64,000 bases of DNA from Bowmanella denitrificans (GTDB lineage: Bacteria; Pseudomonadota; Gammaproteobacteria; Enterobacterales; Alteromonadaceae), in NCBI RefSeq assembly GCF_002887595.1, contig NZ_PEBU01000005.1, positions 182,648 through 246,647 on the forward strand, given 5' to 3'. The stretch's first letter is position 1. Each line of letters begins with the position of its first letter. The translations under genes and the position numbers were made by a program. Below the pieces are notes generated by a model. The model worked only from the letters and a program-made list of their open reading frames with translations. It was not told the origin of the DNA and searched no databases. Of this stretch, positions 128 through 23,706 are shown piece by piece.

Positions 128-817
128 CTATTCTTCTTCAAAATATATGTGATAGTGTTTTGAAATATCCGATTCACCAAGCCTATTCATTGTGCTCTTG
201 AACTCTGGTGAGTCACCCAAATGTTTATACGCTGCCACATAAGTACAGACCACAGAAGCCTTGTTATTTTCAAAATTGTTAAATTGAATAAATTCTTGAG
301 CTAAGCTCTGTTCATAGCCCTCCATTAAGATTCTCATTCCTAATCCAATATCAGCTAAGCTATCAACATTTTTGGTAAGCTTATAGATACCTTCGATTAC
401 TTTGTCACTTAAGCCAAAGATTATTGTGATTACACGCAACCTAATTGATTGTTCTACGTCTTCCAATAGCTTTAACAAAGCCAAATAATGAGCTGGGTCC
501 TCCGTACAATTCAAAAAACAATCACAAGCTTCATCTCGAACCTCCGACCATGCAGAATTAATCAAAGGAAATACATACGGAAATATACTAGCTGCGCCAT
601 TTCCCTCTTGAGCAGCAATGTAGGCAGCGACATATTGACAATGCTTACTACCAGACTCAAGCAAGGGAACTAAGTCAGACACATCTTCCAATTTATTGTG
701 AAGCTCGTTCATTGCCAAGTTATGCTCTTCCCAACTTTCATCATAGTTTCCAGCTAGAAACTCATCCCTTAATTGGGTAAATGATTTTTTCTTTAATTCA
801 AATTTTGAGTCAGTCAT
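128..817 (-). CDS. Putative immunity protein for the RHS toxin, HEAT-like
   Basis: A 229-residue cytoplasmic protein with no signal peptide or membrane segment. Residues about 40-150 read as paired amphipathic helices with HEAT-like spacing (for example around AAYIAAQEG and EVRDEACDCFLN), the fold of several known polymorphic-toxin immunity families. Its start ATG overlaps the TGA stop of the RHS gene as ATGA, so the two are translationally coupled, and it is the last gene of the unit. That position, directly after a C-terminal toxin tip, is the main argument for an immunity role: it should bind and neutralise the 89-residue tip of sister-cell or self toxin. Base composition is AT-rich, like the tip and unlike the RHS core. 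I cannot assign it to a named Imm family. An unrelated HEAT-repeat protein is the alternative. Confidence 0.7.
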   Translation of the reverse strand: MTDSKFELKKKSFTQLRDEFLAGNYDESWEEHNLAMNELHNKLEDVSDLVPLLESGSKHCQYVAAYIAAQEGNGAASIFPYVFPLINSAWSEVRDEACDCFLNCTEDPAHYLALLKLLEDVEQSIRLRVITIIFGLSDKVIEGIYKLTKNVDSLADIGLGMRILMEGYEQSLAQEFIQFNNFENNKASVVCTYVAAYKHLGDSPEFKSTMNRLGESDISKHYHIYFEEE

Positions 818-8654: not shown

Positions 8655-8670
8655 GATGTCCCTATCAAAT

Positions 8671-8694
8671 ATAGTCACATTACCATGTGACTAT
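8671..8694. promoter_or_regulatory. Perfect 10-bp inverted repeat in the RHS-operon leader
   Basis: ATAGTCACAT at 8671-8680 and ATGTGACTAT at 8685-8694 are exact complements around a TACC loop, 17 bp upstream of the first start codon of the operon. It could be an operator dyad or an RNA hairpin that affects translation. The half-sites face the wrong way for a CRP site (TCACA...TGTGA instead of TGTGA...TCACA). Confidence 0.5.
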
Positions 8695-8786: not shown

Positions 8787-9839
8787 TTAAAGTGCCACAC
8801 GACCACCACCCAATAAGCCACGGTAAAAGTTTTGTCCTTCCACCAGCAGAATTTCGCCGCTTTCACCACCTTTGATACCGCTGTCGATGGCGATAACGTC
8901 ACCGTTATACAGAGCGCGGATATGTTTCTGGGTGGTATGGCCGACTAAGATATGGGCAACACCGAAATGTTGTTTCAGTAAGTCGATATCCTGCTGCGAG
9001 GCCTGCGGGTCTTTAAAATAGCCGCGATACCAGATGGGTCCGTTGGTTTTATGCAGATAGCGGGCGAAACCTTGTCTTGGCTGGTCCTGATCTTCCACCA
9101 GTTGGCCGGTAAACACCTGGTTGATGTCAGCCAGGGTACGCCCTTCCCTGGCCAGCTCTGGGTGCAGGCCACCATGCAAAAACAGCATATCGCCGATTTT
9201 AACCAGCACATTACGCGTGCGCAGCCATTGGCCCAATAAGGTGTCTTCGCCATAAAGCCTGGCAAAAGGCCGATTCAGTAGGTTAGCGACTTTTTCATAC
9301 TTTTCATGCAGGTAACGCAGATCGCCGTTAAGCACCATGGTTTCATGGTTGCCAAGCAGAAAATGCACCTTACCACCGGCTGCCTGGGCCTGTTGTTGTA
9401 ACTGATAAATCAGCCACAACGCTTCGGTTTGCTTAGGGCCGCGGTCAAATACATCACCGCTGATCACCAGCCCCCCTTCGCCAAACAGCCAGTTACCCTG
9501 GGCATCCATAATCTGATGCGCAACTAGCAGGCGTTTAAACAGGTCAAACTGGCCGTGAATATCACTGATGACCGCCAGTTTTTCCGCCGCTGGATAGGTT
9601 ACGTCGGGCCGCGATGCTGGCAATGGGCTAAGCTGGGCCGCCTGGCCGCATTTTTCAATGGACATGTCCTGCACCGGGGGCGGGAATCGGTAACTTTTTC
9701 GTTGCCCCTGGCACACCCATAGGGCTTCCCACTGGTTCACCTGCATTTGCACATAAGGGCCGTCCGTCAAGGTATCGTCACTGACCAAATCCGAACAACC
9801 AACCAACAGCAAAACAAGCAACAGCACTTTGCAATTCAT
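8787..9839 (-). CDS. Shewanella-type (Shelph) PPP metallophosphatase lipoprotein
   Basis: A 350-residue calcineurin-like phosphatase. Metal and catalytic motifs are in the usual order: SDIHGQFD (about 92-99), GDVFDRGP (about 125-132), LLGNHETM (about 161-168), HGGLHPE and VGHTT. The GNHE motif followed by NGDLRYLHEKY and QWLRTRNV is characteristic of the bacterial Shelph group of PPP phosphatases, which act on phospho-Ser/Thr/Tyr or small phosphoesters. The N-terminus MNCKVLLLVLLLVGCSD carries a lipobox (LVGC), so the enzyme should be a periplasmic lipoprotein. It sits alone between the RHS operon and the first TonB-receptor gene, with a stem-loop upstream. The family assignment is firm; the substrate is unknown. 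Confidence 0.85.
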   Translation of the reverse strand: MNCKVLLLVLLLVGCSDLVSDDTLTDGPYVQMQVNQWEALWVCQGQRKSYRFPPPVQDMSIEKCGQAAQLSPLPASRPDVTYPAAEKLAVISDIHGQFDLFKRLLVAHQIMDAQGNWLFGEGGLVISGDVFDRGPKQTEALWLIYQLQQQAQAAGGKVHFLLGNHETMVLNGDLRYLHEKYEKVANLLNRPFARLYGEDTLLGQWLRTRNVLVKIGDMLFLHGGLHPELAREGRTLADINQVFTGQLVEDQDQPRQGFARYLHKTNGPIWYRGYFKDPQASQQDIDLLKQHFGVAHILVGHTTQKHIRALYNGDVIAIDSGIKGGESGEILLVEGQNFYRGLLGGGRVAL

Positions 9840-9894: not shown

Positions 9895-12882
9895 TTAGAA
9901 CTTCAGCTCAGCGCCGGCATAAACAAAACGACCGATACCACCACCATAGGCACTGGCAAAGTTGCCGGTTCCGGACTCATACAGGTCGCCGGTATTGGCA
10001 ACAAAGGGCCCCTGGTTATCGAACAGGTTCCTAACCCCGGCGTACAAACGCAGGTCGGTACTGTTGTCAAATTCCAGGTCGTAGGATACCGAGATGTCGT
10101 GGCGCACATAGCTGCCGTAATACAGATACATGGGCACCTCGGGATTGGCGATGGCGTCAGGATCGCCCGCATCTAACTTAGCCTGATTGTCGGCTTGCAG
10201 TTTTTCCCAGGCGTCCACCCGCTCATGCGAGTCGACTATGGCACTCTTGAACTTAGTGCTCCAACGCACCCGCCAGTCCTGCCAACGCCAGGTGATAGAC
10301 CCTGTTGCTGCATCGTCAAAGATGCCACTGTATAGCTCCCCTTTGTAATTCAGGGTTTCCAGCCCATCGTTGCCTTCAAAGGTTTTGGAGTGCTCGATAA
10401 CATGGGTCATATCGGCCTTAAACTTCAGACTGCCCCAGTCGCCGAGGTCATACTGGTAAGCAAGCGCCACGTCATAACCGCGGGTACGTACCTCAGAAAG
10501 GTTAAATACCCGTTGCATCACCTGCATCAACTGGCCTTCACTGTCACGACTGATATCACCGCAGAAGGTATTGTCCTGACCATAAGCCAGTGACGAGTTG
10601 TAGCATTGCTCCAGGATTTTCTGATTGTCGATTTCTTCAATGGCATCCTGGATCTCGATATCGTAGTAGTCCACCGCCAGTTGCAACCCCGGTGCAAACG
10701 CAGGGGCCATGCTGATCCCGAAGGTGTATGTGTCAGCCGTTTCTTCTTTCAGATTTTCATTACCGGCATTGGGTGAATAACCCGAGTTTTCATCTTCGAA
10801 TTCACCGTATAAAGCAATGGCATTGGCAATGCCGGGGTCCAACCGACAGTTGTCATGACCTGCTTCGGTAGAGGTTGCAGTAGTGCCGTCACAAATATCG
10901 GCAAAGCTGTCATAGTCACCACGAGGGGGCGACAACAATTCGGTAATATTGGGAGCACGCTGGGCTCTGGCGTAGTTGGCACGCAACATATAGCCGTCCA
11001 TGGGCTCCCACATCAGTCCGGCCCGGTAGCTGGCCATCAGGTCAATATTTTTGTGACTGTAATCAGCCAAACGCAGAGACAAGTCGGCAGATAAGCGCTT
11101 GGCCAGTGGTGCATCTTTTAACAACGGCACATTCGCTTCGGCAAAGGCTTCCCACACATCAATGTCACCGGCAAAACTCGGTACCAGATTAAAGGTAATA
11201 CCGCCGTATCTGTGTCCTTCGCTGGTATCCAGGTCCTGCTTATCTTTACGATATTCCACACCAAAGGCGGTGGATACCATGCCGGCCGGCAATTCGAACA
11301 AGTCACCACTCATATAGCCCAGCACATTAAACTGGCTGATATTGGTGGTAATAGTGGGGTTGGCACGAATATAGTCGGCGGCTTCGGGGCTAATACTGCC
11401 ATAACCGAAGATGTTGACCGGCACACAACCTTCAGCCCTGGCATCCGCGTCGGCACATTGAATAGTGCTGCCGTCCTCAGCGTATTCGGCATCCAGCGCC
11501 TGACGCAGCTTCAGAATATTCAATTCATTGCGGCGTAGTTGTTGCTGCTTAAACTTGCCATAGCCTACCGACAGATCCCAGTCCCAGTTACCGTCAAACG
11601 CGGTGCCTTGCAGGCCCGCCCAGGTACGCAGGGTTTCCCGTTCGTTGTCGGTGATCACATTGCCCAATTCCACAAACAGCCGGTCCCAACTCACACTGCT
11701 ACCCGCAGTCGCGGCAATTTCGGCAGGCACAAAGGGGTTATCGGGAGAAATACTGCCCGCTGCCTGTTCTGACGCTTCGCCGGTAATTGGGTCGATCACC
11801 AGTTCGGTGTCGTTGTAGTCCTGCCCTTCCGGGTCCTTAATGTTCAGCGACTGGTTATTGCTGTATTGCACCTGGAAATTGGCCCGCACATCGTCGGTCA
11901 GGTCGTAGTTCACTTTAAACGCGGCAGCTACTCGGTCACTGGGAACTTTCAGGCGTTCGTATATCGACAGATTGGCGCCGTCACGCTCTTCAACGAAGCC
12001 TTCGGTCAGGCCATTCTGCGGATGGTAAAACCAGTCGTCGCCTTCAAAGGTACCGCCAGCGGTATTGTCGCTGCGCTCCCGCCAGTCATCCATACTGATG
12101 TCGCGCATGCACTGGTCACCATCAATAGTGTTGTTGGCGTTACACATTTTTTCGGTATCGTAATCGAAGCTGGATTCATACTTAGCCCGCTCCCGGTCGC
12201 CCCAGGCCAGACCAAATTGTCTGTCCCAGGTTGCGCCAACATACAGATAGCCGCGACCATCCTGAAAATCAGCGCCGTAGCCCGCATCCAGAGTGAATTC
12301 CTTGCCGCCCCCTTCCGGGGTATAACCACGACGGGCATCCAGTTCAAAGCCGGTTTTGTTATTGCGGGTAATAATATTCACCACCCCGGCAATGGCGTCA
12401 GAGCCATAGATAGCGGATGCACCACCACTGATGATTTCAACCTTTTCCACCATGGCGCTGGGAATGGTGCTAAGGCTGACGTAGTTACCACTGTAACTGT
12501 TCGAAACCACCCGTCTGCCATCAATCAGCGTTAGAGTACGGTCGGTGCCAAGGTTGCGCAGATCAATGGTAGACAGGCCGGTGTTCTGCACACTGGATTG
12601 AGAATTGGTGTTACTGACACCTTCGGCAATGGCCGGTATTTCTTCCACCAGAATTTCTGACAGTTCACCCAGGCCGGTATCCATAATAGCGTCCTGGTCA
12701 AGACTGACGATGGGCGTGGCAAAAGAAAAGCTGTCGCGCTTGATACGCGAGCCGGTGACAGAGATACGCTCGGCGTCTCCGACCTGCGGCGCGCTCTGGG
12801 TTTCTTCCTGCTGCTGAGCCATTGCCGGTAAACTTCCCAGCAGTATGGTCTGTATAGCCAGGGTCAGGATGGTCTTATGCAT
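9895..12882 (-). CDS. TonB-dependent outer-membrane receptor, paralogue 1
   Basis: About 995 residues. I place the start at the ATG at 12882 because the signal peptide MHKTILTLAIQTILLGSLPAMA begins there; an upstream in-frame ATG at 12915 would add an 11-residue lead unlike the paralogue. The plug follows (ERISVTGSRIKRDSFSFATP, then DLRNLGTDRTLTLIDGRR and SGGASAIYGSDAIAGVVNIIT), then a 22-strand-type barrel ending in aromatic Phe (AGAELKF). It is closely similar throughout to the receptor at 15480-18491. It is divergent from a membrane winged-helix regulator and carries a tandem 11-bp box about 145 bp upstream of its start. Receptors of this style usually import peptides or oligosaccharides through TonB. 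A peptide ligand is inferred from the nearby M16 protease that shares the box. Confidence 0.93.
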   Translation of the reverse strand: MHKTILTLAIQTILLGSLPAMAQQQEETQSAPQVGDAERISVTGSRIKRDSFSFATPIVSLDQDAIMDTGLGELSEILVEEIPAIAEGVSNTNSQSSVQNTGLSTIDLRNLGTDRTLTLIDGRRVVSNSYSGNYVSLSTIPSAMVEKVEIISGGASAIYGSDAIAGVVNIITRNNKTGFELDARRGYTPEGGGKEFTLDAGYGADFQDGRGYLYVGATWDRQFGLAWGDRERAKYESSFDYDTEKMCNANNTIDGDQCMRDISMDDWRERSDNTAGGTFEGDDWFYHPQNGLTEGFVEERDGANLSIYERLKVPSDRVAAAFKVNYDLTDDVRANFQVQYSNNQSLNIKDPEGQDYNDTELVIDPITGEASEQAAGSISPDNPFVPAEIAATAGSSVSWDRLFVELGNVITDNERETLRTWAGLQGTAFDGNWDWDLSVGYGKFKQQQLRRNELNILKLRQALDAEYAEDGSTIQCADADARAEGCVPVNIFGYGSISPEAADYIRANPTITTNISQFNVLGYMSGDLFELPAGMVSTAFGVEYRKDKQDLDTSEGHRYGGITFNLVPSFAGDIDVWEAFAEANVPLLKDAPLAKRLSADLSLRLADYSHKNIDLMASYRAGLMWEPMDGYMLRANYARAQRAPNITELLSPPRGDYDSFADICDGTTATSTEAGHDNCRLDPGIANAIALYGEFEDENSGYSPNAGNENLKEETADTYTFGISMAPAFAPGLQLAVDYYDIEIQDAIEEIDNQKILEQCYNSSLAYGQDNTFCGDISRDSEGQLMQVMQRVFNLSEVRTRGYDVALAYQYDLGDWGSLKFKADMTHVIEHSKTFEGNDGLETLNYKGELYSGIFDDAATGSITWRWQDWRVRWSTKFKSAIVDSHERVDAWEKLQADNQAKLDAGDPDAIANPEVPMYLYYGSYVRHDISVSYDLEFDNSTDLRLYAGVRNLFDNQGPFVANTGDLYESGTGNFASAYGGGIGRFVYAGAELKF

Positions 12883-13207
12883 TTTTCTGGTCCCATGATG
12901 TGTGAATGTGTTCAACTTGTTGCGTCAGGCAAAGATGCTTAGCAATATCTCTTGCCTGACACCGTTTTAGTTGCCGATGGAATTTCGCACAATCTGGCCA
13001 GGCTCGTTTTTGCCTCTGCTATCTGGTTTTTACCTCTTTTTAATCTCTTTCATAAATAAATGCATATTTATCAAATAGTTAAACATACCACTGTAACTTT
13101 TGCTAACCGCACTATGTATTGAGGATGATTGATGATCCCAGGCCCTTTGGTTAGAGTGGTGTTATTGCCATTCAACCCGTTACGCCAGAAAAACAGGCCT
13201 GATATCC
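12883..13207. other. Divergent intergenic region, receptor 1 / regulator 1
   Basis: No gene is visible. It holds the tandem 11-bp box at 13027-13048 and an AT-rich tract beyond it (about 13049-13100) that likely contains promoter elements. A further TGCCTCT-like half-site lies just left of the box near 13010. Confidence 0.6.
13027..13048 (-). promoter_or_regulatory. Tandem 11-bp direct-repeat box upstream of receptor 1
   Basis: TTTTTACCTCT (13027-13037) is followed directly by TTTTAATCTCT (13038-13048). On the minus strand this reads as two near-identical AGAG(A/G)TNAAA units with an 11-bp pitch, the geometry of OmpR/PhoB-type winged-helix sites. The same box recurs at 18626-18647 and 23685-23706, so it is the best candidate operator for the adjacent CadC-like regulators. 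Confidence 0.65.
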
Positions 13208-15301
13208 ATGCGAAATTCTTTCCAACTGGGCAACTGCCGGGTGGTGCCCAGCGAGTGTGCTGTGTATTTCAATAATGGAGAAAAACAAAACCTGCAGCCC
13301 AAACTGATTGAGGTGCTGATTTACCTGGCCGACGCTCACCCGGCGGTGGTATCCAGACAGGAGCTGATTGACAAAGTCTGGCAGGGTAATACCTATGTGG
13401 GGGAAAATGCCCTCAACAATGTGATCTGGAATCTGCGCCAAATCTTCAAAGAGGGTATGCAGGATGAGGTGATAGAAACCTTGCGCAAAACCGGCTATCG
13501 GCTGCTCATTGCGCCAGATAGTCTGTCATCACCATCCTCACCGGCAGAGCACACCACCAGACCATCTGCCCGCCGCTTATGGCCATGGCTGGCCGCCGCT
13601 GTGCTGGTTATTTTGTTTATTAGCAGCTTCGGGCTATTGAATCACAGCCAGCAAACATCCCAGCGCAGCATCCAGGCGCTGACCACTGAACCGGGACTGG
13701 AGCTGTTCCCTTCCCCTTCGGCTGATGGTCGTTATCTGGTGTATAAATGGGTGAGCGCCGACGGCCAGGTGGACCTGTTTAAACGTGACCTGCTGCAACC
13801 CGGACTGGCCGCCGTGCGTTTAACTTATGATCAGGCTTCTGAAGGCCATTCGGTATGGAGCCATGATAGCCGCTTTTTGTATTTCAGCCGCAAGGACCGC
13901 AGTAAAGCCCAATGTGATATTGTGCGAATGGACATGCAGAACTACGAGGAAGTCTTTGTTACCCATTGCCCCATAGGCGGCGGCTACTATTACATTGATA
14001 TCTCCCCTGACGATAAAACCCTGGCGTTCTACGGCTCCGACCCGGACGCAGAGCAATCTGGCGTGTATTTTCTGGATCTGCAGGATAAAAATGCCAGCCC
14101 CGTGCGTTTTTCCTGCGCCAGACACTGTGGATACAAAGATCGCGATATGGCGTTTTCGCCCGACGGTAAGCACCTGGCCCTGACCCGCAGAGTCAATGAA
14201 TTTAACGAAAACATCTATCTGGTCAGGTTGTCAGATCAGTCCACCCGGCAGTTAACCCAAGGTGAGGAAGATATTGTCGGGCTGACCTGGCACCCTGATG
14301 GCCAACGCTTGGTATACGCGGTACAACGTGCAGATGTGCGCAGCGGCTTTATGCTGGATTTGCGCACTCAGCGCCAGTATCCGCTGGAAATAGAAGGCCT
14401 GAGTTATCCATTCTTTGCCCGCAACCAGCCCTGGCTGTTCTTTCAGCACCGCAGTGAACAATACCAGATAGCATCAGTGCAGGTTGACGCCCAAATCAGC
14501 AGTGCCCCCTACCCGGTTTTGCAGTCCGTATACAATCATAAGTATCCGGACTATTCAGCAACAACCAATCAGCTTGCCTTTATTTCCAACGAAACCGGCC
14601 ATTATGAGGTTTGGGTGTCTGATGCGTTTGGTAACAACAGGCGGCAACTGACCCATTTGAAACGCAACAGCCGTTATCCCACCTGGTCACACAACGGCCA
14701 GCGCATTGCGTTTCTGGCCACAGACGATGATGGCAAAGGCGATCGCATTTACCAGGTGGATGTGGCCACTAAACGCATTTCGGCACTGGACAGCCCTTTT
14801 GAGGGCCACAATCGACCAACCTGGACCTTGGATGACCAAGGCATTATTTCCGCCGTATTCAATCAGGACCACACCGATATCTATCTGTTCAGACAGGATG
14901 GCAGTGTTCCGCAGCGCCTGACCTTTAACGGCGGCGAATACGGCATAATGCAGGACAATGACAAACTGATTTACAGCGTGCAGCGCAAAGGATTATGGCA
15001 AACCGATATTCACAGCGGGCAAACCAGGCAATTGCTGGAAGAACAGCATTTCCGTAATCCCTATAGCTGGACCTTGTCTGAGCAAGGTGTGTATTTTATG
15101 CAGGCCAACAATCAGCATCAGCAACTCAGGCATTACGACTTAGCCAACGGACAAAACCTTGTGCTGCTGCAGATCCCAAGTGCCAGTGTCGAATCGGACA
15201 GCCCGCTGACTTATGATGCCAACCACGCCAGACTGCTGTTTACCGAGACGGAGTTTCCCCAATCCGACATCAAAATGCTTAAGGACCCGTTGTTTCAATA
15301 A
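13208..15301 (+). CDS. CadC-like transmembrane winged-helix regulator with PD40 sensor, paralogue 1
   Basis: 697 residues. Residues 1-102 form an OmpR/CadC-type winged helix (LQPKLIEVLIYLADAHPAVVSRQEL, then NNVIWNLRQIFKEG and the wing KTGYRLL). A linker and one membrane segment at about 125-145 (WPWLAAAVLVILFISSFGLL) follow. Residues about 160-690 form a periplasmic TolB/PD40-type beta-propeller with repeats such as FSPDGKHLAL (around 318), WHPDGQRLVY and WSHNGQRIAFL. This is the ToxR/CadC layout: DNA-binding domain inside, sensor outside, signalling through one membrane span without a kinase. It is divergent from receptor 1 and very similar to the protein at 18802-20898. It probably senses the imported substrate or envelope state and controls genes with the tandem 11-bp box. 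The signal is unknown. Confidence 0.88.
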   Translation: MRNSFQLGNCRVVPSECAVYFNNGEKQNLQPKLIEVLIYLADAHPAVVSRQELIDKVWQGNTYVGENALNNVIWNLRQIFKEGMQDEVIETLRKTGYRLLIAPDSLSSPSSPAEHTTRPSARRLWPWLAAAVLVILFISSFGLLNHSQQTSQRSIQALTTEPGLELFPSPSADGRYLVYKWVSADGQVDLFKRDLLQPGLAAVRLTYDQASEGHSVWSHDSRFLYFSRKDRSKAQCDIVRMDMQNYEEVFVTHCPIGGGYYYIDISPDDKTLAFYGSDPDAEQSGVYFLDLQDKNASPVRFSCARHCGYKDRDMAFSPDGKHLALTRRVNEFNENIYLVRLSDQSTRQLTQGEEDIVGLTWHPDGQRLVYAVQRADVRSGFMLDLRTQRQYPLEIEGLSYPFFARNQPWLFFQHRSEQYQIASVQVDAQISSAPYPVLQSVYNHKYPDYSATTNQLAFISNETGHYEVWVSDAFGNNRRQLTHLKRNSRYPTWSHNGQRIAFLATDDDGKGDRIYQVDVATKRISALDSPFEGHNRPTWTLDDQGIISAVFNQDHTDIYLFRQDGSVPQRLTFNGGEYGIMQDNDKLIYSVQRKGLWQTDIHSGQTRQLLEEQHFRNPYSWTLSEQGVYFMQANNQHQQLRHYDLANGQNLVLLQIPSASVESDSPLTYDANHARLLFTETEFPQSDIKMLKDPLFQ

Positions 15302-15323
15302 TTGACTGCATGGCTATTTCAGC

Positions 15324-15440
15324 CCGTCCATCCCTGGACATCGCCGACGAGTGCTCCTGCTACGTCGGCATACCGTCCATCCCTGGACATCGCCGACGAG
15401 TGCTCCTGCTACGTCGGCATACCGTCCATCCCTGGACATA
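15324..15440. repeat. 49-bp tandem repeat, 2.4 copies
   Basis: Two identical 49-bp units at 15324-15372 and 15373-15421 begin CCGTCCATCCCTGGACAT and end TACGTCGGCATA, followed by a 19-bp partial copy at 15422-15440 that runs into the terminator. CGTCCATCC(C)TG(G/A)ACATCGCCG also occurs in the array at 29671-29841. There are no unique spacers, so this is not CRISPR. Confidence 0.85.
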
Positions 15441-15444
15441 AAAA

Positions 15445-15462
15445 AGGGCGCAAACGCGCCCT
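15445..15462 (-). terminator. Intrinsic terminator of receptor 2, possibly bidirectional
   Basis: AGGGCGC (15445-15451), loop AAAC, GCGCCCT (15456-15462). On the minus strand the stem is followed by six T residues, fitting termination of the receptor gene that stops at 15480. On the plus strand an ATTATTA tract follows, so it may also end the regulator 1 transcript. Confidence 0.75.
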
Positions 15463-15479
15463 ATTATTAGATCAGGTTG

Positions 15480-18400
15480 TTAGAACCGAATTTCGGCCCC
15501 CAGGTAAGCGAAGCGACCGACACCGCCGTCGTATTCACCTTCGTAGTTACCATCACCGGTTTCTACAATATCGCCGGTGTTAGGAACAAAGGCACTTTCT
15601 TTGTCAAACACGTTGCGCACGCCACCGTAAAGCTTCAGATCCATGCCACCGTCCAGTTCCAGATTGTAGGATACAGACAAGTCATGGGTGATGTAGGAGC
15701 CATAGAACAGATACATGGGCGTTTCAGGATTGGCAATACCGCCTGTGCCCGCGTCCAGTTTGGCCTGATTTTCTGCTTTAAGTAGTTCCCAGTCCTCAAC
15801 CCGGCCGTGATCATCGACCACTGATCCTTTGTACTTGGTTTTCCAGCGAATACGCAGGTCATCATAACGCCAGGTCACCGAGGCTGTAGCGCGGTCGGTA
15901 AACACGCCACTGCTAAGCTCGCCGTTGTAGTTTAGGGTTTCCAGACCATCGTTACCCTCATAGGTAACCGAACGCTCAATCACATGGGTGAAGTTCAGGT
16001 TGAATGACAACGCCCCTAGATCGTCCAGGTCATATTTGTATGCCATGGAGATGTCGTAGCCTCTGGCAGTTTCTTCTGCCAGGTTGAACTGGCGCTGAAT
16101 CAACTGGGTGATATTCCCTTCTGAGTCACGGGTAATTTCACCACAGAAAGCGTTACCTTCACCAAAAGGCACGGAAGAGTCATAACACTCTTTAAGGATC
16201 TCTTCATTGCCGATGGAGGTAATGGCATCCTTAATGGTGATGTCGTAGTAATCCAGAGCAATATTGAAATTCTCAATAAAGCTCGGTGCGGCTGTAATCC
16301 CCAGGGTGTAGGTATCTGCGGTTTCTTCTTTCAGATTTTCATTACCGGCATTGGGTGAATAGCCGGTGTTACCGTCGGTAAACTCGCCGTACAGGTTAAT
16401 GGCATTGGCAATACCCGGTTCCTGGCGACAAGCTTCGTGGCCTGCGTCTGTGGAAGTTGCGGTTACGCCGTCACAAATATCAGAGTAGCTGTTGTAATCG
16501 CCTCTTGGTGGCGATACCAGCTCAGTGATGTTAGGCGCACGCTGGGCTCTGGCATAGTTGGCACGCACTGCATAACCTTCGGCCGGCTCCCACATCAGAC
16601 CGGCGCGATAGGATGACATAAGGTCAATGTTTTTCTGGCTGTAGTCAGCCAGGCGCAAGGACAGGTCTAAATCCAATCGCTTGGCGGCTGGTGCATCTTT
16701 AAGCAGCGGTACTGTTGCCTCACCAAACGCCTCCCACACTTTAACTTCACCAGAGAATGGCGGTACATCGTTAAAGGTGATGGCCTCGCCACGCAAGGCA
16801 ACGTCGGTGTCCACTTTTTGCGTGTCGCGACGATATTCCACCCCAAAGGCCGCCGCGACCATACCGGCTGGCATTTCAAACAAATCACCGGCCATAAAAG
16901 CCTGTGCGTTGAACTGGGTAATGTCGGTATTAATATAAGGATTGGCACGAATATAGTCGGCCGCTTCCGGGGTAATGCTATTAATTCCAAAGATATTTAC
17001 TGGTACACACCCTGCAGCACGGGCCTGTTCATCCGCACATTGAATAGTAGTGCCGTCGGCGGCGTATTCCGCATCCAGGCCTAGCGCCAGCTTGGTAATG
17101 CTGATTTCGTTAAAACGGCGTTGCTCCTGCTTAAACTTGCCATAACCCACCGAAGCTTCCCAGTCCCACTGTCCATCAAACAACGTGCCCTGTAAACCGG
17201 CAGATGTGCGAATGGTGGTACGGGTATTCTCGGTAATAACGTTACCCACCTCGTCAAAACGGCGATCCCAGGTGACACTCTTGCCAGCCATTTCCGCTAT
17301 CACAGCGGGCACGAATGGATTGTCGGGGCTGATGGTGCCTGGCATGACTAACTCCGATGCACCAGTTAATGGATTAATACGCAACTCATCGTCGTTATAA
17401 TCCTGTCCTTCAGGTGAGTTGGTGCGGCCGGACTTGTTCTTAGCGTAATGTATCTGGAAAGTACCGCGCAGGTCATCGGTCAGGTCGTAATTTACTTTCA
17501 GGGCACTAGCCAGCTTGTCAACGGGGATCTTAAGAATGTCCCACTCGTAGGTATCATAGCCGTCACGCTCTTCTTTGAAATCTTCCCTGAGATTATTGTC
17601 GGCATCGTACCACCAGCTATTGCTTTCAAAACGACCACCAGAAATATCATTGCTGCGCTCACGCCAGTCATCCATGGTGATATCACGCATACACTGGTCG
17701 CCATCAATAGTATTGTTGGCGTTACACATTTTCTCTGCGTCGTAATCAAAGCTTGACTCATATTGCGATCTGTCACGGTCCCAGGCCAGTAAGCCAAACT
17801 GACGGTCCCAGGTAACGGCTGCATACAGATAACCGCGATCATCGGCAAAGCTGGCACCATAACCAGTATCGATAGTGAACTCACGGGCGCCGCCTTCGGT
17901 ACTTTCACCGCCGCGCACATCGATTTCAAACCCAGTCTTGTTGTTTTCGGTGATAATGTTGACCACCCCGGCAATCGCATCTGAACCATACACGGCAGAG
18001 GCACCACCGGTGATCACTTCGACACGGTCTACCATGGCAGCAGGAATAGTGGCCAGACTGATATAGTTACCGCTGTAGCTGTTAGACACTGCGCGGCGAC
18101 CGTCAATCAGTGTCAGGGTACGGTCGGTACCCAGGTCACGCAAATCAATAGTAGATAAGCCGGTGTTCTGCACACTGCCTTGGGAGTTGGTATTGCTGGA
18201 ACCGGCACTGATGGAGGGAATTTCATCCACCAGAATATCTGCCAGTTCACCAATGCCAGAATCTACCAGGTCATCCTTACCCATCATCATCATGGGCGTA
18301 GACATGGAAAAACTGTCACGTTTAATCCGTGAGCCGGTCACGGAAATCTTCTCGACTTCCTTAACTTGCTGTTCTTCAACCTGGGCGGCATTGCTGCTCT

Positions 18401-18491
18401 GGGTGGGGGTAACATCAACTTGTTGCGCCATGACCGAAGCGCTGCTAAAAACAGCGGCCTGGATGGCAAGGGTCAGGAGTTTCTTTTTCAT
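15480..18491 (-). CDS. TonB-dependent outer-membrane receptor, paralogue 2
   Basis: 1003 residues. Signal peptide MKKKLLTLAIQAAVFSSASVMA, then the plug (EKISVTGSRIKRDSFSMSTP, DLRDLGTDRTLTLIDGRR, SAVYGSDAIAGVVNIIT) and a barrel ending YLGAEIRF. Long runs match the receptor at 9895-12882 (CNANNTIDGDQCMRDI, DWRERS, ARAQRAPNITEL, SPNAGNENLKEETADTYT), so the two arose by duplication. The start follows a GGGAC element 10 bp upstream, as in paralogue 1. A tandem 11-bp box lies about 135 bp upstream, and the divergent neighbour is the second membrane winged-helix regulator. It differs from paralogue 1 mostly in putative extracellular loops, which suggests related but distinct ligands. Confidence 0.93.
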   Translation of the reverse strand: MKKKLLTLAIQAAVFSSASVMAQQVDVTPTQSSNAAQVEEQQVKEVEKISVTGSRIKRDSFSMSTPMMMMGKDDLVDSGIGELADILVDEIPSISAGSSNTNSQGSVQNTGLSTIDLRDLGTDRTLTLIDGRRAVSNSYSGNYISLATIPAAMVDRVEVITGGASAVYGSDAIAGVVNIITENNKTGFEIDVRGGESTEGGAREFTIDTGYGASFADDRGYLYAAVTWDRQFGLLAWDRDRSQYESSFDYDAEKMCNANNTIDGDQCMRDITMDDWRERSNDISGGRFESNSWWYDADNNLREDFKEERDGYDTYEWDILKIPVDKLASALKVNYDLTDDLRGTFQIHYAKNKSGRTNSPEGQDYNDDELRINPLTGASELVMPGTISPDNPFVPAVIAEMAGKSVTWDRRFDEVGNVITENTRTTIRTSAGLQGTLFDGQWDWEASVGYGKFKQEQRRFNEISITKLALGLDAEYAADGTTIQCADEQARAAGCVPVNIFGINSITPEAADYIRANPYINTDITQFNAQAFMAGDLFEMPAGMVAAAFGVEYRRDTQKVDTDVALRGEAITFNDVPPFSGEVKVWEAFGEATVPLLKDAPAAKRLDLDLSLRLADYSQKNIDLMSSYRAGLMWEPAEGYAVRANYARAQRAPNITELVSPPRGDYNSYSDICDGVTATSTDAGHEACRQEPGIANAINLYGEFTDGNTGYSPNAGNENLKEETADTYTLGITAAPSFIENFNIALDYYDITIKDAITSIGNEEILKECYDSSVPFGEGNAFCGEITRDSEGNITQLIQRQFNLAEETARGYDISMAYKYDLDDLGALSFNLNFTHVIERSVTYEGNDGLETLNYNGELSSGVFTDRATASVTWRYDDLRIRWKTKYKGSVVDDHGRVEDWELLKAENQAKLDAGTGGIANPETPMYLFYGSYITHDLSVSYNLELDGGMDLKLYGGVRNVFDKESAFVPNTGDIVETGDGNYEGEYDGGVGRFAYLGAEIRF

Positions 18492-18801
18492 TGGTTTATG
18501 TCCCTAGACTATGTGTGCTTTACGGGTCTTTGTATTTCTGCGACTTGTTGGTCAGATTAAGCAGATGTTTCCTTTTATTTAACCCGCTTAACAAGCACAA
18601 CACAGCCTGACTCTATTCTTCCCCACTTCTATCTCTATTTAATCTCTATTCTGAAGTTTTTACTTTAATATCAATATGTTGATAAGTTCACTCATGAGGA
18701 GTAACATTTACTCACGCTATTGTGTTTGCGGGCACGCCAGCAATCCGCTAGATTGCCATCTAACTGCCCGACCACTTGAATATGCCTAAGAAATCAGTCT
18801 G
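18492..18801. other. Divergent intergenic region, receptor 2 / regulator 2
   Basis: No gene is visible. It contains the tandem 11-bp box at 18626-18647 with a further CTCTATTCTT half-like unit just left of it (18611-18620), then an AT-rich stretch (about 18655-18700) expected to hold promoters for one or both genes. Confidence 0.6.
18626..18647 (-). promoter_or_regulatory. Tandem 11-bp direct-repeat box upstream of receptor 2
   Basis: CTTCTATCTCT (18626-18636) is followed directly by ATTTAATCTCT (18637-18647). The second unit is identical to that at 23696-23706. The first is more diverged than in the other two copies (CTTCTATCTCT against TTTTTACCTCT). Confidence 0.6.
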
Positions 18802-20898
18802 ATGCTTCAATCTGCTCCCTTTACCATTGGTGAGTTCAGGGTCGAACCCCTGGAATGTGCCATTTATCTGCCAGATGGCGAGAAGCACAGCCTGCAGCCT
18901 AAATTTATCGAAGTATTGTGTTATCTGGCATCCCATTATCCCCGCGTGGTGCCCCGTCAGGAACTGATTGAACATGTGTGGCAGGGCAATGGTTATGTGG
19001 GCGAAAAAGCCCTGACTAATGCCATTTGGCATTTACGCCAGGCGCTTAAGCAACAGGATGGCAGTGAAAGTATTCAAACCATTCGCAAGAGTGGTTATCA
19101 GCTCCTGGTGCAACCCGAATTTGAGGCAGAGCCAGCCGTTGTACCTGCCGCCGCAGACATGGCAGGAAAACCGCGGATGCCGGTCTGGGGATGGTCGGGC
19201 TTAGGCATAATACTGCTTATTGTTGGCTTGTTCTGGTGGTGGCCGCAAGAGCAAATAGCCGCTATCCAACCCGATATCATTACCAAACAGCCAGGTATGG
19301 AGCTTTTCCCTGCTCCATCGCCCGATGGCTTATTTACTGCCTTTAAATGGCGTCGCTCAGACGGCAGCATGGATTTGTACCTGCAGGATGCCAGACAGAC
19401 GAACCTACCCGCCCGGCAACTGACCTTTGATGAAGCCAATGAAGGACGACCAGTTTGGGATATGACAGGCAAGTTTCTGTTTTTCAGACGTAAAAATGAC
19501 GATCTGGAAACCTGCCAGGTGATCAGGCTGGAGGTTGAAAGCCTGCAGGAAAAAGTGGTGGGCAAGTGCCCGCTGGGTGGTGATTTACATTACCTGGATA
19601 TCAGCCCGGATAACAGCGTGCTGGCCTACTGGGGCCTGGAAGGTGTGGCAGATACCCCGGCGGTTTATATTAAAAACCTCAACGACGAGAGTCAGTCTGC
19701 CCCCACCTGTCTGAATGAATGCAATATGCGTGACCGGGATTTAGCCTTTTCACCCGATGGCAGTCAACTGGCCATCAGCCGCCGAATCAGCCGGTTTGCC
19801 GAAAACATCTATCTGCGCAATCTGGCCACCGGCGAGGAAAGACAACTCACCGAAGGGGAATCAGACATTGTCGGGATTAGCTGGCATCCGGACGGCAAAC
19901 ATCTGGTGTATGGCGTACAACGGGCGGATGCCCGCTCGGGCTTTTTGCTGAATATTCACAGCGGTGAGTCTACGCCCATGAATATCGAGGGTTTTAGTTA
20001 CCCGTCGTTTGCCAAGCAGGTACCCTGGCTGTATTTTCAGACCCGCAGCGAGTTTTATCAAATAGCCTACCTGCCTGTGGCCGAGGAGCTGCCATCCAGC
20101 CCTTTCCCCTTACTACAATCGGACTACAACCATAAGTACCCTGATTATTCTGCGGCCACAGACCGGATTGCTTATCTTTCCAATGAATCCGGCCATTATG
20201 AAATATGGGTGGCTGATGCTGAGGGCAACCAGCGCCAGCAATTAACCCACTTAAAACGCTCGGTATTGTATCCGCGCTGGTCCCACGACGGCAGGCGCAT
20301 TGCTTTTCTGGCCGCCAATGCTAACGGCAAAGGCGACTCACTGATGATTGTGGATGTGGATAGCAAACGCCTGATCCGCGTGCCCAGCCCTTACCAGACT
20401 CATCAGCGCCCCACCTGGACGGCAGATGATCAGGCACTGGTAGCATCGGTTTATGATGAAGAACAGCGTCAGCTCTATCTGTTTCCGCTGGATAACAGGC
20501 CCGTCAGCCAGTTGACCGAAGATGGCGGTGTTTTCGGTATTATGCTGGCAGATGATACGCTGATTTATTCCCGCTCTGAACCCGGCCTGTACAGTATGGC
20601 TGCCGGTTCAAAGCAACCCAAACTGTTGATCGCGCCGGACCACTTCGGCACAAGATACACCTGGACCCTGGCCGACAGTGGCGACATTTACTTTGCCGAC
20701 CCTGGTGCCCGCCATACTGATATCAAGCGATTTGACGCAGAAAATGCCACGGTGGCTGCCATAATGCGCCTGCCTCTGTCTGCCGTGGTGGCGTACAGTT
20801 CACTGAGCCTGGACAGCAAACGCCAGCGCCTGCTGTTTAACAACACCATTAAGGCCCAGTCGGATATCAAAAGAATCAAAGATCTGCCGCTAAACTAG
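18802..20898 (+). CDS. CadC-like transmembrane winged-helix regulator with PD40 sensor, paralogue 2
   Basis: 698 residues with the same plan as the protein at 13208-15301. An N-terminal OmpR-type winged helix (LQPKFIEVLCYLASHYPRVVPRQEL, wing RKSGYQLL near residue 98) is followed by a membrane segment at about 132-150 (WGWSGLGIILLIVGLFWWW) and a periplasmic PD40/TolB propeller (DISPDNSVLAYWG, FSPDGSQLAISRR, WHPDGKHLVYGVQRAD, WSHDGRRIAFLAANANGKGD). Identity with paralogue 1 is high over the sensor too, so the two probably recognise related signals. It is divergent from receptor 2. Its last 23 bp overlap the 3' end of the opposing M16 protease gene. It is a likely activator of box-bearing genes; cross-regulation with paralogue 1 is plausible because their boxes are nearly the same. 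Confidence 0.88.
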   Translation: MLQSAPFTIGEFRVEPLECAIYLPDGEKHSLQPKFIEVLCYLASHYPRVVPRQELIEHVWQGNGYVGEKALTNAIWHLRQALKQQDGSESIQTIRKSGYQLLVQPEFEAEPAVVPAAADMAGKPRMPVWGWSGLGIILLIVGLFWWWPQEQIAAIQPDIITKQPGMELFPAPSPDGLFTAFKWRRSDGSMDLYLQDARQTNLPARQLTFDEANEGRPVWDMTGKFLFFRRKNDDLETCQVIRLEVESLQEKVVGKCPLGGDLHYLDISPDNSVLAYWGLEGVADTPAVYIKNLNDESQSAPTCLNECNMRDRDLAFSPDGSQLAISRRISRFAENIYLRNLATGEERQLTEGESDIVGISWHPDGKHLVYGVQRADARSGFLLNIHSGESTPMNIEGFSYPSFAKQVPWLYFQTRSEFYQIAYLPVAEELPSSPFPLLQSDYNHKYPDYSAATDRIAYLSNESGHYEIWVADAEGNQRQQLTHLKRSVLYPRWSHDGRRIAFLAANANGKGDSLMIVDVDSKRLIRVPSPYQTHQRPTWTADDQALVASVYDEEQRQLYLFPLDNRPVSQLTEDGGVFGIMLADDTLIYSRSEPGLYSMAAGSKQPKLLIAPDHFGTRYTWTLADSGDIYFADPGARHTDIKRFDAENATVAAIMRLPLSAVVAYSSLSLDSKRQRLLFNNTIKAQSDIKRIKDLPLN

Positions 20899-23611
20899 CG
20901 CTTGTGCCCGCCTGAGTATGATTTTGCAGTAACACCCCACTTAACTGGCTGTTAAGCAATGTCGTGGCCATTTCCTGAAAGGCCGGTAACGGCATAGTTA
21001 CAATGGCATGCAATAATTGCTGATGATGTTCCAAATCGCGCTGATAGCGAATATGGCTGCGCAAATCTGCTTCAATATCACCGCTGTTTATCTGCTGTTG
21101 TTGTAGGGCACTGACCAGATTCTGCTGCAACTTGCTAAATTCGGCTGGCTGCAAGGATGCAATTTGCGCGATAAATACCTGGTTAAAATGTGCAATGCGT
21201 TGCAGGAGCTGCTGCGCCGATGTTACCGGCGACTGCACATAGTAGCTGATATGGCGCTTGCCATACCGCTCTGCGGCCAGCGCCGAGACCCGGTATCCCA
21301 ATTGTTCCTGGGTACGCAATTGATGAAAAAACGGTGCCTTAAGCATGCTGCCCAGCAGTTCCACCATGGCCTGTTGCTGCACATCCTGCCCCTTTGGCAC
21401 TAGCATCAGTTTCACTGCACTGTCACTGCCGGCAACCGGATGCTGGTGGTGTTCCTCGGGCCAAGGCTTGCTGTCAATTGGCCTGTGAGAGGCCAGGTTG
21501 TTATGTTCAGCCAGCCCCTGCACGGCAGCGATAAGCTGTTGTGTCTGCTCTGTTTGTAAAGGACCATAGGTGATCAGGCTCAGATAGGCATCATGCAGGT
21601 AGGCAGCCGTAAAGCCACGGTAGTGGCCCTCGCTCATCTTTTGCAGATACGCCAGGTCGTCTTGCGCTAAACTGGCTCGACCCAACTGATAACTAAGCAA
21701 TCTGTCAGCCTGGCTGCTGAGTCGCTCCTGGACAAAGCCGGCCAGACTGTTAATTCGGCGCTTTAAGGTAAGACGCAGGGCCGTGTCATCCAATTCAGGT
21801 CGCTGCAAGCCTGCCAGCATATCCGCAAACAGTGCTGACCAGTTACCGCTTTGCCCTTTAACTTGTATGCGCATGCCGCTACTGGTCGCGGTTACCGATG
21901 CCTGAATCTTTGCTGCGCTGGCCCGTTCAATCACCTGCTGCAGTTGCAATTGCAGACGCTTCTCGAACAGCACATTCAGGGCAGAAAAGTCAGCGGCAGT
22001 GGTAGGCCGGTCAATATACAATGTGATGGCCGTGTAACTGTCTTTATCCCGCCTGGCGGGTAATTGCCAAATGGCCAGCCCTGGCTGATGCGTTACTTTT
22101 TGCTCGGTTACCGCCAACGCCTCAGTGCTGGCGGCAAAATAGTCAGACAAACCGGGCAGGCTGAAATCAAGCGGCTGAGCCTGCCAGTCCGGTATGGCGG
22201 CATACCGGAACTCCGTCTGATAAATAGGTTCGACCATCTGGGTGTTAAGCTTACTGCCTTCACGAATAACCAGCATATTCTGCGCATTGAAGTGCGACCA
22301 GAAATCCGTTAGCGCCTGGGGGTTAAAAGCCACAGGCAGGCTGTCCTGGCTAAGTAACTGCTGAACAGGTCGTTGCAACAAGGCTTTGGACAATGCTCTT
22401 ACCCTGCTGGCATCGGCATGCTCGGGGGTCTGATGAAATTGCGCCGCCGACAGGGATGAAAAAGTCTCAAATACCTTGCTATCCAACGCCTGATGGCGAA
22501 TCTGCTGCACATAGGCAAAGGTCGCCGCCATAATCGCGGCTTCTTCTTTCATTCCGGCACCGGTGAGATTAAAGCTCAGGTTGAATAGCGCATGGCGGCT
22601 ATCCAACTCACTGTCACTGGCCGACAAGCTTTGGATCCAGCCCTTGTCACGCAGATAAGCTTCCAGTCCTTGGTCATTGTAACTGGCCAGCAGCCATTGG
22701 GTGTAAGGTATTGCCAGGGTATCGCGGCTGGCCTGATTAACCGGTAAAGGAAAACTCAGGGTCAGATAAGAACGCTTGCGCAGCGTTTTAATCTCCACCT
22801 GGCGCGGCGCGTCTGCAAGCAAGGGCGCGGGTTGCTGATTAAGGGTCTTGCGGCAATTGTCCTGCACTGCACCGAATTTACTTTTTGCCTGCTCACCCAG
22901 TTGCTGCATAGATTGCGGCCCGGCCAGCACCAATGCCATGCGCGAGCTGCAATAATAGTCCTGGCCAAAATCTACCAGCGCCTGATGCAAGGTTTTCTCT
23001 GTCCGATCCTGTAAGGTATCCAGATTGCCGGTGGAAAACTTGCGGTAGCCATGCTCTGGATGAAACAGGGTACGCATCACTTCCCGTTTGCGCCGAAAGG
23101 CATCCTGGTATTTTAAGTTAAACTCGGCCTGTACCGCATTGCGTTCCTTGTACACCATCTGTGCAGGCAGAAGCGGGCCAACAAACTGCCAGGCAAATCT
23201 GTCCAGTGCCGGAATAAAACCGTCACTGGCCGCCTCGAAATAGTAGTTGGTGATTAAGGCCGACGTGGCTGCGTTTGAGCGCCCGCCCTGCTCTGCCAGA
23301 AATTGCTTATATTCAGCCGGGTCAGGGTATTTTTGCGAACCTTTGGACAGCATATGTTCATATAAATGCGCCAGTCCGGCCATGTCGGGCGGGTCCTGAT
23401 AATAGCCAGCCTCAACACTCAGTGCCCCATATACTTTGCTAAGCTGTGCATCGCTGACCAGCAACACTTTTAAGCCGTTATCCAGCATCAGATATTGATA
23501 ATCTGCCGGGTCCTGTTGACCTTTAAGTGGCGTATTGGCTATTTCAGGCTGGGTAATCTGACAGGCGCAAAGCAGTAGAGCAAGGCCGAATGGCACTATC
23601 CGCTGAAGCAT
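20876..23611 (-). CDS. M16 family (pitrilysin/insulinase-like) zinc protease lipoprotein
   Basis: 911 residues. The signal sequence MLQRIVPFGLALLLCACQ has a lipobox with Cys17, so the protein is membrane-anchored on the periplasmic or outer-membrane side. The inverted zinc motif HLYEH lies at residues 82-86, with the third ligand in ERNAVQAEF (Glu163), 77 residues after the last His as in M16 enzymes. The C-terminal half carries the RTQEQLGYRVSA motif of pitrilysin-type substrate-binding domains. M16 enzymes degrade oligopeptides. The tandem 11-bp box lies 74 bp upstream of its start, matching those of the two receptors, so it is predicted to trim peptides for, or after, their import. The 3' end overlaps regulator 2 on the opposite strand by 23 bp. 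Confidence 0.9.
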   Translation of the reverse strand: MLQRIVPFGLALLLCACQITQPEIANTPLKGQQDPADYQYLMLDNGLKVLLVSDAQLSKVYGALSVEAGYYQDPPDMAGLAHLYEHMLSKGSQKYPDPAEYKQFLAEQGGRSNAATSALITNYYFEAASDGFIPALDRFAWQFVGPLLPAQMVYKERNAVQAEFNLKYQDAFRRKREVMRTLFHPEHGYRKFSTGNLDTLQDRTEKTLHQALVDFGQDYYCSSRMALVLAGPQSMQQLGEQAKSKFGAVQDNCRKTLNQQPAPLLADAPRQVEIKTLRKRSYLTLSFPLPVNQASRDTLAIPYTQWLLASYNDQGLEAYLRDKGWIQSLSASDSELDSRHALFNLSFNLTGAGMKEEAAIMAATFAYVQQIRHQALDSKVFETFSSLSAAQFHQTPEHADASRVRALSKALLQRPVQQLLSQDSLPVAFNPQALTDFWSHFNAQNMLVIREGSKLNTQMVEPIYQTEFRYAAIPDWQAQPLDFSLPGLSDYFAASTEALAVTEQKVTHQPGLAIWQLPARRDKDSYTAITLYIDRPTTAADFSALNVLFEKRLQLQLQQVIERASAAKIQASVTATSSGMRIQVKGQSGNWSALFADMLAGLQRPELDDTALRLTLKRRINSLAGFVQERLSSQADRLLSYQLGRASLAQDDLAYLQKMSEGHYRGFTAAYLHDAYLSLITYGPLQTEQTQQLIAAVQGLAEHNNLASHRPIDSKPWPEEHHQHPVAGSDSAVKLMLVPKGQDVQQQAMVELLGSMLKAPFFHQLRTQEQLGYRVSALAAERYGKRHISYYVQSPVTSAQQLLQRIAHFNQVFIAQIASLQPAEFSKLQQNLVSALQQQQINSGDIEADLRSHIRYQRDLEHHQQLLHAIVTMPLPAFQEMATTLLNSQLSGVLLQNHTQAGTSASLAADL

Positions 23612-23684
23612 GGCTTTTCCTTTGGCAAAACAAAAGCCGCACCCTAACGTTCGGGCCCACGTTCACTCAATGCCCGCCAGCTCC

Positions 23685-23706
23685 TTTTTACCTCTATTTA
23701 ATCTCT
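23685..23706 (-). promoter_or_regulatory. Tandem 11-bp direct-repeat box upstream of the M16 protease
   Basis: TTTTTACCTCT (23685-23695) is followed directly by ATTTAATCTCT (23696-23706). It lies between the M16 start and the stop codon of the upstream DUF3325 gene, touching that stop. Its first unit is identical to that at 13027 and its second to that at 18637. Confidence 0.65.

What the first reader, a model, noticed from the sequence alone, without database searches (positions are those of the whole stretch)
13027..23706. Shared tandem 11-bp box upstream of two receptors and an M16 protease
TTTTTACCTCT or a close variant is followed directly by (T/A)TTTAATCTCT at 13027-13048, 18626-18647 and 23685-23706. 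All three sites lie upstream of minus-strand genes: receptor 1, receptor 2 and the M16 lipoprotein. The 11-bp direct-repeat geometry is that of OmpR-type winged helices, and two such regulators are encoded here. This predicts a single regulon for an extracellular peptide capture, cleavage and import system.
Basis: partly seen in the sequence, partly recalled or inferred. Interest (0 to 1): 0.75.

Follow-up and report, generated by a model that had tools for sequence, protein, structure and literature searches.

The report
Conserved operator of an import regulon
A short tandem DNA repeat in front of two outer-membrane receptor genes and a protease gene is a conserved switch site, most likely bound by the membrane-anchored regulators encoded next door, and it marks a small nutrient-import gene set found in many related bacteria.

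Summary
Three tandem 11-bp repeats (gene strand, about AGAGATTAAAW-AGAGRTARAAR) precede TBDR1, TBDR2 and an M16 peptidase. A model built only from 17 receptor promoters of other genera gives these three as its best hits in the 5.48-Mb genome. A likely promoter follows (-35 TTGT-like, 17 bp, -10 TAAAA-like). The site goes with a CadC-like one-component membrane regulator (winged helix, TM segment, TolB/PD40 propeller): 38 of 47 family genomes with the regulator at E<=1e-100 have a model hit, against 2 of 149 without. One genome that kept the receptor but has no close regulator has a degraded site.

The single-regulon idea is supported; the functional picture is corrected. The core partner of the receptor is a Shewanella-like phosphatase (31 of 35 loci); M16 is recruited in a few lineages (window and 6 of 35), each time with its own site. 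S9 peptidases and other phosphatases recur beside the regulators, which fits import of peptides, perhaps phosphorylated. Binding, sign of regulation, ligand, and which paralogue acts where are untested.

The parts
13027..13048 (-). Operator 1: tandem 11-bp units AGAGATTAAAA|AGAGGTAAAAA upstream of TBDR1
13007..13017 (-). Third unit AGAGGCAAAAA of operator 1, in the place that unit 2 has in other genera
   Evidence: read from the alignment
12964..12992 (-). Predicted TBDR1 promoter: -35 TTGTGC (12987-12992), 17 bp, -10 TAAAAC (12964-12969)
   Evidence: similar spacing in other promoters
18626..18647 (-). Operator 2: AGAGATTAAAT|AGAGATAGAAG upstream of TBDR2 (extra, degenerate 11 bp at 18615-18625)
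18572..18600 (-). Predicted TBDR2 promoter: -35 TTGTGC (18595-18600), 17 bp, -10 TAAAAG (18572-18577)
23685..23706 (-). Operator 3: AGAGATTAAAT|AGAGGTAAAAA upstream of the M16 peptidase
23642..23670 (-). Predicted M16 promoter: -35 TTGAGT (23665-23670), 17 bp, weak -10 TTAGGG (same -10 in G002 and G004)
8787..9839 (-). Shewanella-like PPP phosphatase with lipobox-like start, probably co-transcribed with TBDR1 (inferred from the 55-bp gap)
9895..12882 (-). TBDR1, TonB-dependent receptor
13208..15301 (+). REG1: winged helix + TM segment + PD40/TolB-like propeller
15480..18491 (-). TBDR2, TonB-dependent receptor
18802..20898 (+). REG2: winged helix (nearest solved: CadC, PhoB) + TM segment + TolB-like propeller
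20876..23611 (-). M16 peptidase (pitrilysin/IDE-like), lipoprotein-like start read by eye, HLYEH motif

Best explanation
The box is the operator of a family of CadC-like one-component regulators encoded beside the receptor. SHOWN: the box and the promoter-like elements behind it are conserved, go with the receptor and M16 genes, and are nearly unique in the genome. INFERRED: the cytoplasmic winged helices of REG1/REG2 bind the 11-bp units head to tail just upstream of the -35 element and, when the periplasmic propeller senses a ligand, switch on TBDR1-phosphatase, TBDR2 and M16. INFERRED, weaker: the regulon imports peptides, perhaps phosphorylated; the receptor carries them over the outer membrane, and peptidase and phosphatase trim them. 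REG2, whose recognition helix has the commonest family sequence, is the likelier reader of sites 2 and 3; REG1 may be specialising.
For: Best three hits of an independent model in the own genome. Model hits in 38 of 47 genomes with the regulator and 2 of 149 without; without the 17 training genomes 21 of 30 against 2 of 149. Of 35 loci compared, 33 have a matrix site (score >14) before the receptor, 16 of 18 not used in training. Column information peaks at repeat, -35 and -10. M16 has its own copy in 7 of 7 genomes with adjacent M16. In G020, G065, G098 the site sits before the receptor although the regulator lies about 5 kb away on the same strand. G125 keeps receptor and phosphatase, lacks a close regulator, and its repeat is degraded. 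5 of 7 out-of-family regulator loci have the site, before a receptor in 3 and before an S9 peptidase in 2.
Against: No binding or expression data. Co-occurrence mostly reflects presence of the whole cluster in related genomes; only G125 separates receptor from regulator, and its remnant still beats most shuffles (16 of 5000 reach it). G066 has regulator, receptor and phosphatase but no site above score 12; two of 7 out-of-family loci have none; paralogous loci L125 and L126 show none beside the regulator. One of two R1 hits in G037 lies away from any cluster gene (L110). Weak M16 sites: G115 (11 of 5000 shuffles), G018 (3), G088 (2). The recognition helix varies: 26 of 36 regulators fit one pattern, REG1 does not. 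A PepSY/flavin-reductase gene in G057 would fit iron.
Confidence: 0.8

Rival explanations
1. The box is bound by another, global factor; its closeness to the winged-helix genes is incidental.
For: No binding test exists; in three genomes the regulator lies about 5 kb from the site.
Against: Only three hits with E<1 in 5.48 Mb, unlike a global factor; hits rare where the regulator is absent (2 of 149); degraded in G125.
Confidence: 0.1
2. The sites are chance AT-rich similarity or a leftover of duplication, without a regulatory role.
For: TBDR1/TBDR2 and REG1/REG2 are paralogues (66% and 46% identical), so sites 1 and 2 may share ancestry.
Against: M16 is unrelated yet has the site in 7 of 7 genomes; conservation across genera with diverged flanks; 0 of 5000 shuffles for each window site.
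Confidence: 0.03
3. The regulators bind the box but repress, and the ligand releases them.
For: Position alone does not exclude it; in several promoters a third unit comes close to the -35.
Against: In the 17 canonical promoters the repeat ends 14 bp before the TTG, not over the -35/-10.
Confidence: 0.12
4. The regulon serves iron or haem capture from proteins, Fus/PqqL-like, rather than peptide nutrition.
For: TBDR + M16 is the Fus/YddB-PqqL theme (PMC6793856); PepSY/flavin reductase downstream of a site in G057; TBDRs score best, far below cut-off, with haem-receptor models.
Against: The recurring partners are phosphatases and S9 peptidases; no FusA, YddB, FusC or PqqL named among listed solved relatives, though no direct comparison was run.
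Confidence: 0.22

Closest known systems
CadC/ToxR-type membrane one-component regulators
   Same: N-terminal OmpR-class winged helix, one TM segment, C-terminal extracytoplasmic sensor; CadC 5ju7 is the best solved match of the REG2 winged helix.
   Different: Sensor is a TolB/PD40 propeller of about 530 residues; targets are TBDR, phosphatase and peptidase genes; operator is a defined 11-bp tandem.
PhoB / Pho box (recalled, not from a call)
   Same: 11-bp head-to-tail repeats read by an OmpR-class winged helix.
   Different: Other sequence, no receiver domain, repeats upstream of a recognisable -35.
Fus / YddB-PqqL protease-associated import (PMC6793856 abstract and passages; PMC6071955 passages)
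   Same: TBDR and M16 peptidase encoded together.
   Different: Pitrilysin/IDE-like M16, phosphatase as core partner, own propeller regulator; PqqL is described there as Fur-regulated.
HypR regulon of Alteromonadales (PMC5343134, passages)
   Same: A regulon with a TBDR, peptidases and a peptide permease in the same order of bacteria.
   Different: The HypR regulator and its proline/hydroxyproline regulon; no winged-helix/propeller regulator ('OmpR' and 'CadC' occur 0 times in that text).
Shewanella-like (Shelph) PPP phosphatases
   Same: Window phosphatase matches 1v73/2zbm/2z72 over nearly its full length, E about 1e-89.
   Different: Here tied to a TBDR operon; the passages of PMC535813 that I saw treat sequence and phylogeny.

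Membership tests
OmpR/PhoB winged-helix DNA-binding domain | Trans_reg_C domain above gathering score | tested here: met
   PF00486 56.5 and 58.6 bits, cut-off 26.2
OmpR-type two-component response regulator | Receiver domain | tested here: not met
   No receiver domain among Pfam matches; winged helix at residues 25-101
CadC/ToxR-type membrane one-component regulator | One TM segment between winged helix and C-terminal domain | tested here: met
   Best hydrophobic 19-mer at residue 126 in both; 34 of 36 homologues pass the hydropathy rule; topology itself untested
CadC/ToxR-type membrane one-component regulator | Binds and regulates its target promoters | not testable with these tools
   Needs EMSA, ChIP or deletion
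Fus protease-associated import system | TBDR related to FusA/YddB | tested here: inconclusive
   20 solved TBDR2 matches listed (BtuB, colicin I receptor, ferric enterobactin receptors, FecA, PhuR and others); FusA/YddB not named; no direct comparison
Fus protease-associated import system | FusC/PqqL-type M16 protease | tested here: inconclusive
   Best solved relatives protease III and insulin-degrading enzyme; FusC/PqqL not named among 41 listed; no direct comparison
Shewanella-like PPP phosphatase | Full-length similarity to Shewanella phosphatase I; GDxxDRG and GNHE motifs | tested here: met
   GD..DRG in 30 and GNHE in 32 of 32 homologues, window included

The most novel reading that the evidence does not exclude
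An undescribed import regulon, spread over several families of the order, in which a peptidase-like propeller acts as periplasmic sensor of phosphorylated peptides and, through a tandem 11-bp operator, switches on a receptor plus interchangeable phosphatases (Shewanella-like, alkaline, perhaps purple acid) and interchangeable peptidases (M16, S9). It would give bacterial Shewanella-like phosphatases a role in scavenging phosphopeptides.
Probability: 0.27. Interest if true: 0.75.

Novelty: new variant of a known kind. Interest (0 to 1): 0.55.

Why it matters
It ties a regulator architecture (winged helix + TolB-like propeller) to a defined operator and target set, so that its ligand can be hunted directly. 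It gives a genomic context to Shewanella-like phosphatases, which have crystal structures, and shows how accessory peptidases can join a receptor regulon together with a copy of the operator.

Tried and rejected
Fourth genome match (C5:77869): inside an ORF of a polysaccharide cluster; judged chance. G003, without a close regulator (best 25% identity), gives one 3-mismatch pattern match and no R1 hit; not followed further. G082 and G179, the two genomes without regulator but with an R1 hit, and the second R1 hit of G037 have no window-gene homologue around them (L118, L119, L110); about two hits per 196 genomes are expected at E 0.01, and E-values of this model are rough. G137 counts as 'without' only because its regulator match (3.9e-97) just misses the cut-off; it has a matrix site of 18.4. 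Two-component reading rejected (no receiver domain). The REG2 structure model from 5 sequences was weak (mean pLDDT 63, pTM 0.41); its Foldseek list (tricorn, TolB, DPP IV and many unrelated propellers, low TM-scores) says no more than propeller. Ten paper searches (two searches returned nothing) and passages of five papers showed me no description of this operator or of TBDR control by a winged-helix/PD40 regulator; the library holds open-licence papers only. Trees: REG2 groups with G002/G004, REG1 with G001/G022/G088/G115; TBDR1 does not follow REG1, so the duplication history stays unresolved. On checking the draft I found and mended: G051 had not been examined; the recognition helix is less uniform than first written; -35/-10 hold for a majority, not all, of the 17 promoters; S9 membership of four proteins had been by eye and is now tested. 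The odds of the novel case were raised from 0.2 to 0.27, and those of the best explanation lowered from 0.82 to 0.80 for the variable helix.

Full report
OBSERVATION. The three boxes exist as described. On the gene strand they read AGAGATTAAAA-AGAGGTAAAAA (TBDR1), AGAGATTAAAT-AGAGATAGAAG (TBDR2) and AGAGATTAAAT-AGAGGTAAAAA (M16). A pattern drawn from them matches nothing else in the window at up to 3 mismatches (0 in 100 shuffles) and one further place in the genome, while the backwards control gives 3. In four same-genus genomes the pattern gives 2, 1, 1 and 2 matches (G001, G002, G003, G004; backwards control 0, 0, 0, 1); those of G001, G002 and G004 lie in the homologous cluster.

SURROUNDINGS. 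Phosphatase and TBDR1 (minus) | REG1 (plus), TBDR2 (minus) | REG2 (plus), M16 (minus). REG1 and REG2 (46% identical) carry a winged helix, one hydrophobic segment at residue 126 and PD40 repeats. Best solved matches of REG2 are TolB for the propeller and CadC, then PhoB among others, for the winged helix. The phosphatase is a relative of Shewanella phosphatase I; the M16 protein is pitrilysin/IDE-like.

ORGANISM. Three same-genus genomes are Bowmanella yangjiangensis, B. pacifica and B. dokdonensis (their contig lengths equal those of G004, G002 and G001), so the window is from Bowmanella or close kin.

FOOTPRINT. Regulator homologues (E<=1e-100) occur in 47 of 196 family genomes. The repeat appears in all 25 receptor-regulator intergenic regions aligned (23 genomes, two window regions; the search always returns a best site, scores 26-36). 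Seventeen other-genus promoters give AATAGAT.TTAAATAGAT.TA.AAA.GA....C....GATTGTA..T, then TAAAA: two 11-bp units, 14 bp, a -35 hexamer beginning TTG in 16 of 17 (TTGT in 13), 17 bp, and a -10 beginning TAAA in 11 of 17. Information is high at these elements and low outside, save a moderate rise 19-36 bp upstream of the repeat. Bowmanella-related genomes and several others have about 11 bp more between repeat and -35, sometimes a clear third unit (G127; out-of-family loci).

INDEPENDENT TEST. R1, made from those 17 promoters (none of the genus, none of M16 genes), gives the M16, TBDR2 and TBDR1 sites as best hits in the own genome. Over 196 family genomes 40 have an R1 hit at E<=0.01: 38 of 47 with the regulator, 2 of 149 without; without training genomes 21 of 30 against 2 of 149 (Fisher p 2.7e-18; genomes are related, so this p is not a true probability). 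Of the nine regulator genomes without R1 hit, G022, G050, G057, G065 and G146 have a matrix site before the receptor; G066 has none above score 12; G051, G152 and G188 were not examined.

RECEPTOR WITHOUT REGULATOR. G125 keeps receptor (60% to TBDR1) and phosphatase; its best regulator match is a 25% paralogue elsewhere. Its repeat scores 10.3 (16 of 5000 shuffles reach that) and gives no R1 hit at 0.01, while congeners score 34.2 and 34.4 (G017, G064, both training) or R1 E 3.8e-10 (G097, not training). The -35 remains. A single case. In G020, G065 and G098 the site stands before the receptor although the regulator lies about 5 kb on, so it goes with the receptor.

REGULON CONTENT. In 35 regulator loci compared (of those fetched, L111, L113, L118, L119 and L124-L126 among others were left out as partial, paralogous or without regulator) a receptor occurs in 35, the phosphatase in 31, M16 in 6. 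All seven genomes with adjacent M16 have a site before it; shuffles reaching its score, of 5000: window 0, G001 0, G004 0, G002 0, G115 11, G088 2, G018 3. S9 peptidases follow receptor or phosphatase in G135, G050 and G098 and lie downstream of the regulator in G007 and G143 (S9). In two loci of another family (G321, G244) the site stands before an S9 peptidase, in G244 followed 16 bp on by an alkaline phosphatase. Other sites precede a POT/MFS transporter (G102), a purple-acid-phosphatase-like gene (G075) and a 231-aa ORF followed by a PepSY/flavin reductase (G057). Peptidase plus phosphatase of unrelated families thus recurs; G057 fits iron as well.

MECHANISM. Shown: conserved site, promoter-like elements, targets. 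Inferred: neighbouring winged helices bind the tandem and activate from upstream of the -35; the propeller senses a periplasmic ligand; the products import and trim peptides, perhaps phosphorylated. The recognition helix fits GEKALTN[ATV]IW[HNQ][LIM]R in 26 of 36 regulators (14 exactly GEKALTNAIWHLRQ); REG2 has that exact form, REG1 reads GENALNNVIWNLRQ, and site 1 scores lowest with R1. So REG2 is the likelier shared regulator.

KNOWN SYSTEMS. Works like CadC/ToxR-type regulation with PhoB-like repeat geometry (the latter recalled). It shares TBDR + M16 with Fus/YddB-PqqL (PMC6793856 abstract and passages, PMC6071955 passages), membership inconclusive. Among regulon reconstructions, passages of PMC5343134 describe a HypR regulon with TBDR and peptidases in Alteromonadales under an unrelated regulator; PMC3223726 has 'TonB', 'CadC' and 'winged' 0 times.

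VERDICT. A real, conserved operator that defines a compact import regulon. New variant of a known kind.

Noticed in passing
window 8787-9839: Shewanella-like PPP phosphatase is a near-constant neighbour of this receptor (31 of 35 loci).
   Followed up: partly
L163 (G125) 7024: Genome with receptor and phosphatase but no close regulator has a degraded operator with the -35 still present.
   Followed up: yes
L181 1343-3874; L182 2896-6582: In another family the operator precedes an S9 peptidase, once followed by an alkaline phosphatase: peptidase and phosphatase recur with unrelated families.
   Followed up: partly
L111 10229; L113 4786; L123 8175: Operator-like tandems before a POT/MFS transporter, a purple-acid-phosphatase-like gene, and a 231-aa ORF followed by a PepSY/flavin reductase.
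   Followed up: partly
window 13208-15301: REG1 has a recognition helix unlike the commonest family sequence; possible change of specificity between the paralogues.
   Followed up: partly
17 other-genus receptor promoters, 19-36 bp upstream of the repeat: A moderately conserved stretch upstream of the operator, unexplained.
   Followed up: no
window 814-6087: 1757-aa Rhs/YD-repeat protein with a weak intein-N-like stretch at residues 1530-1606.
   Followed up: no
window 6564-8678: 704-aa ORF without Pfam or NCBIfam match at E 0.001.
   Followed up: no
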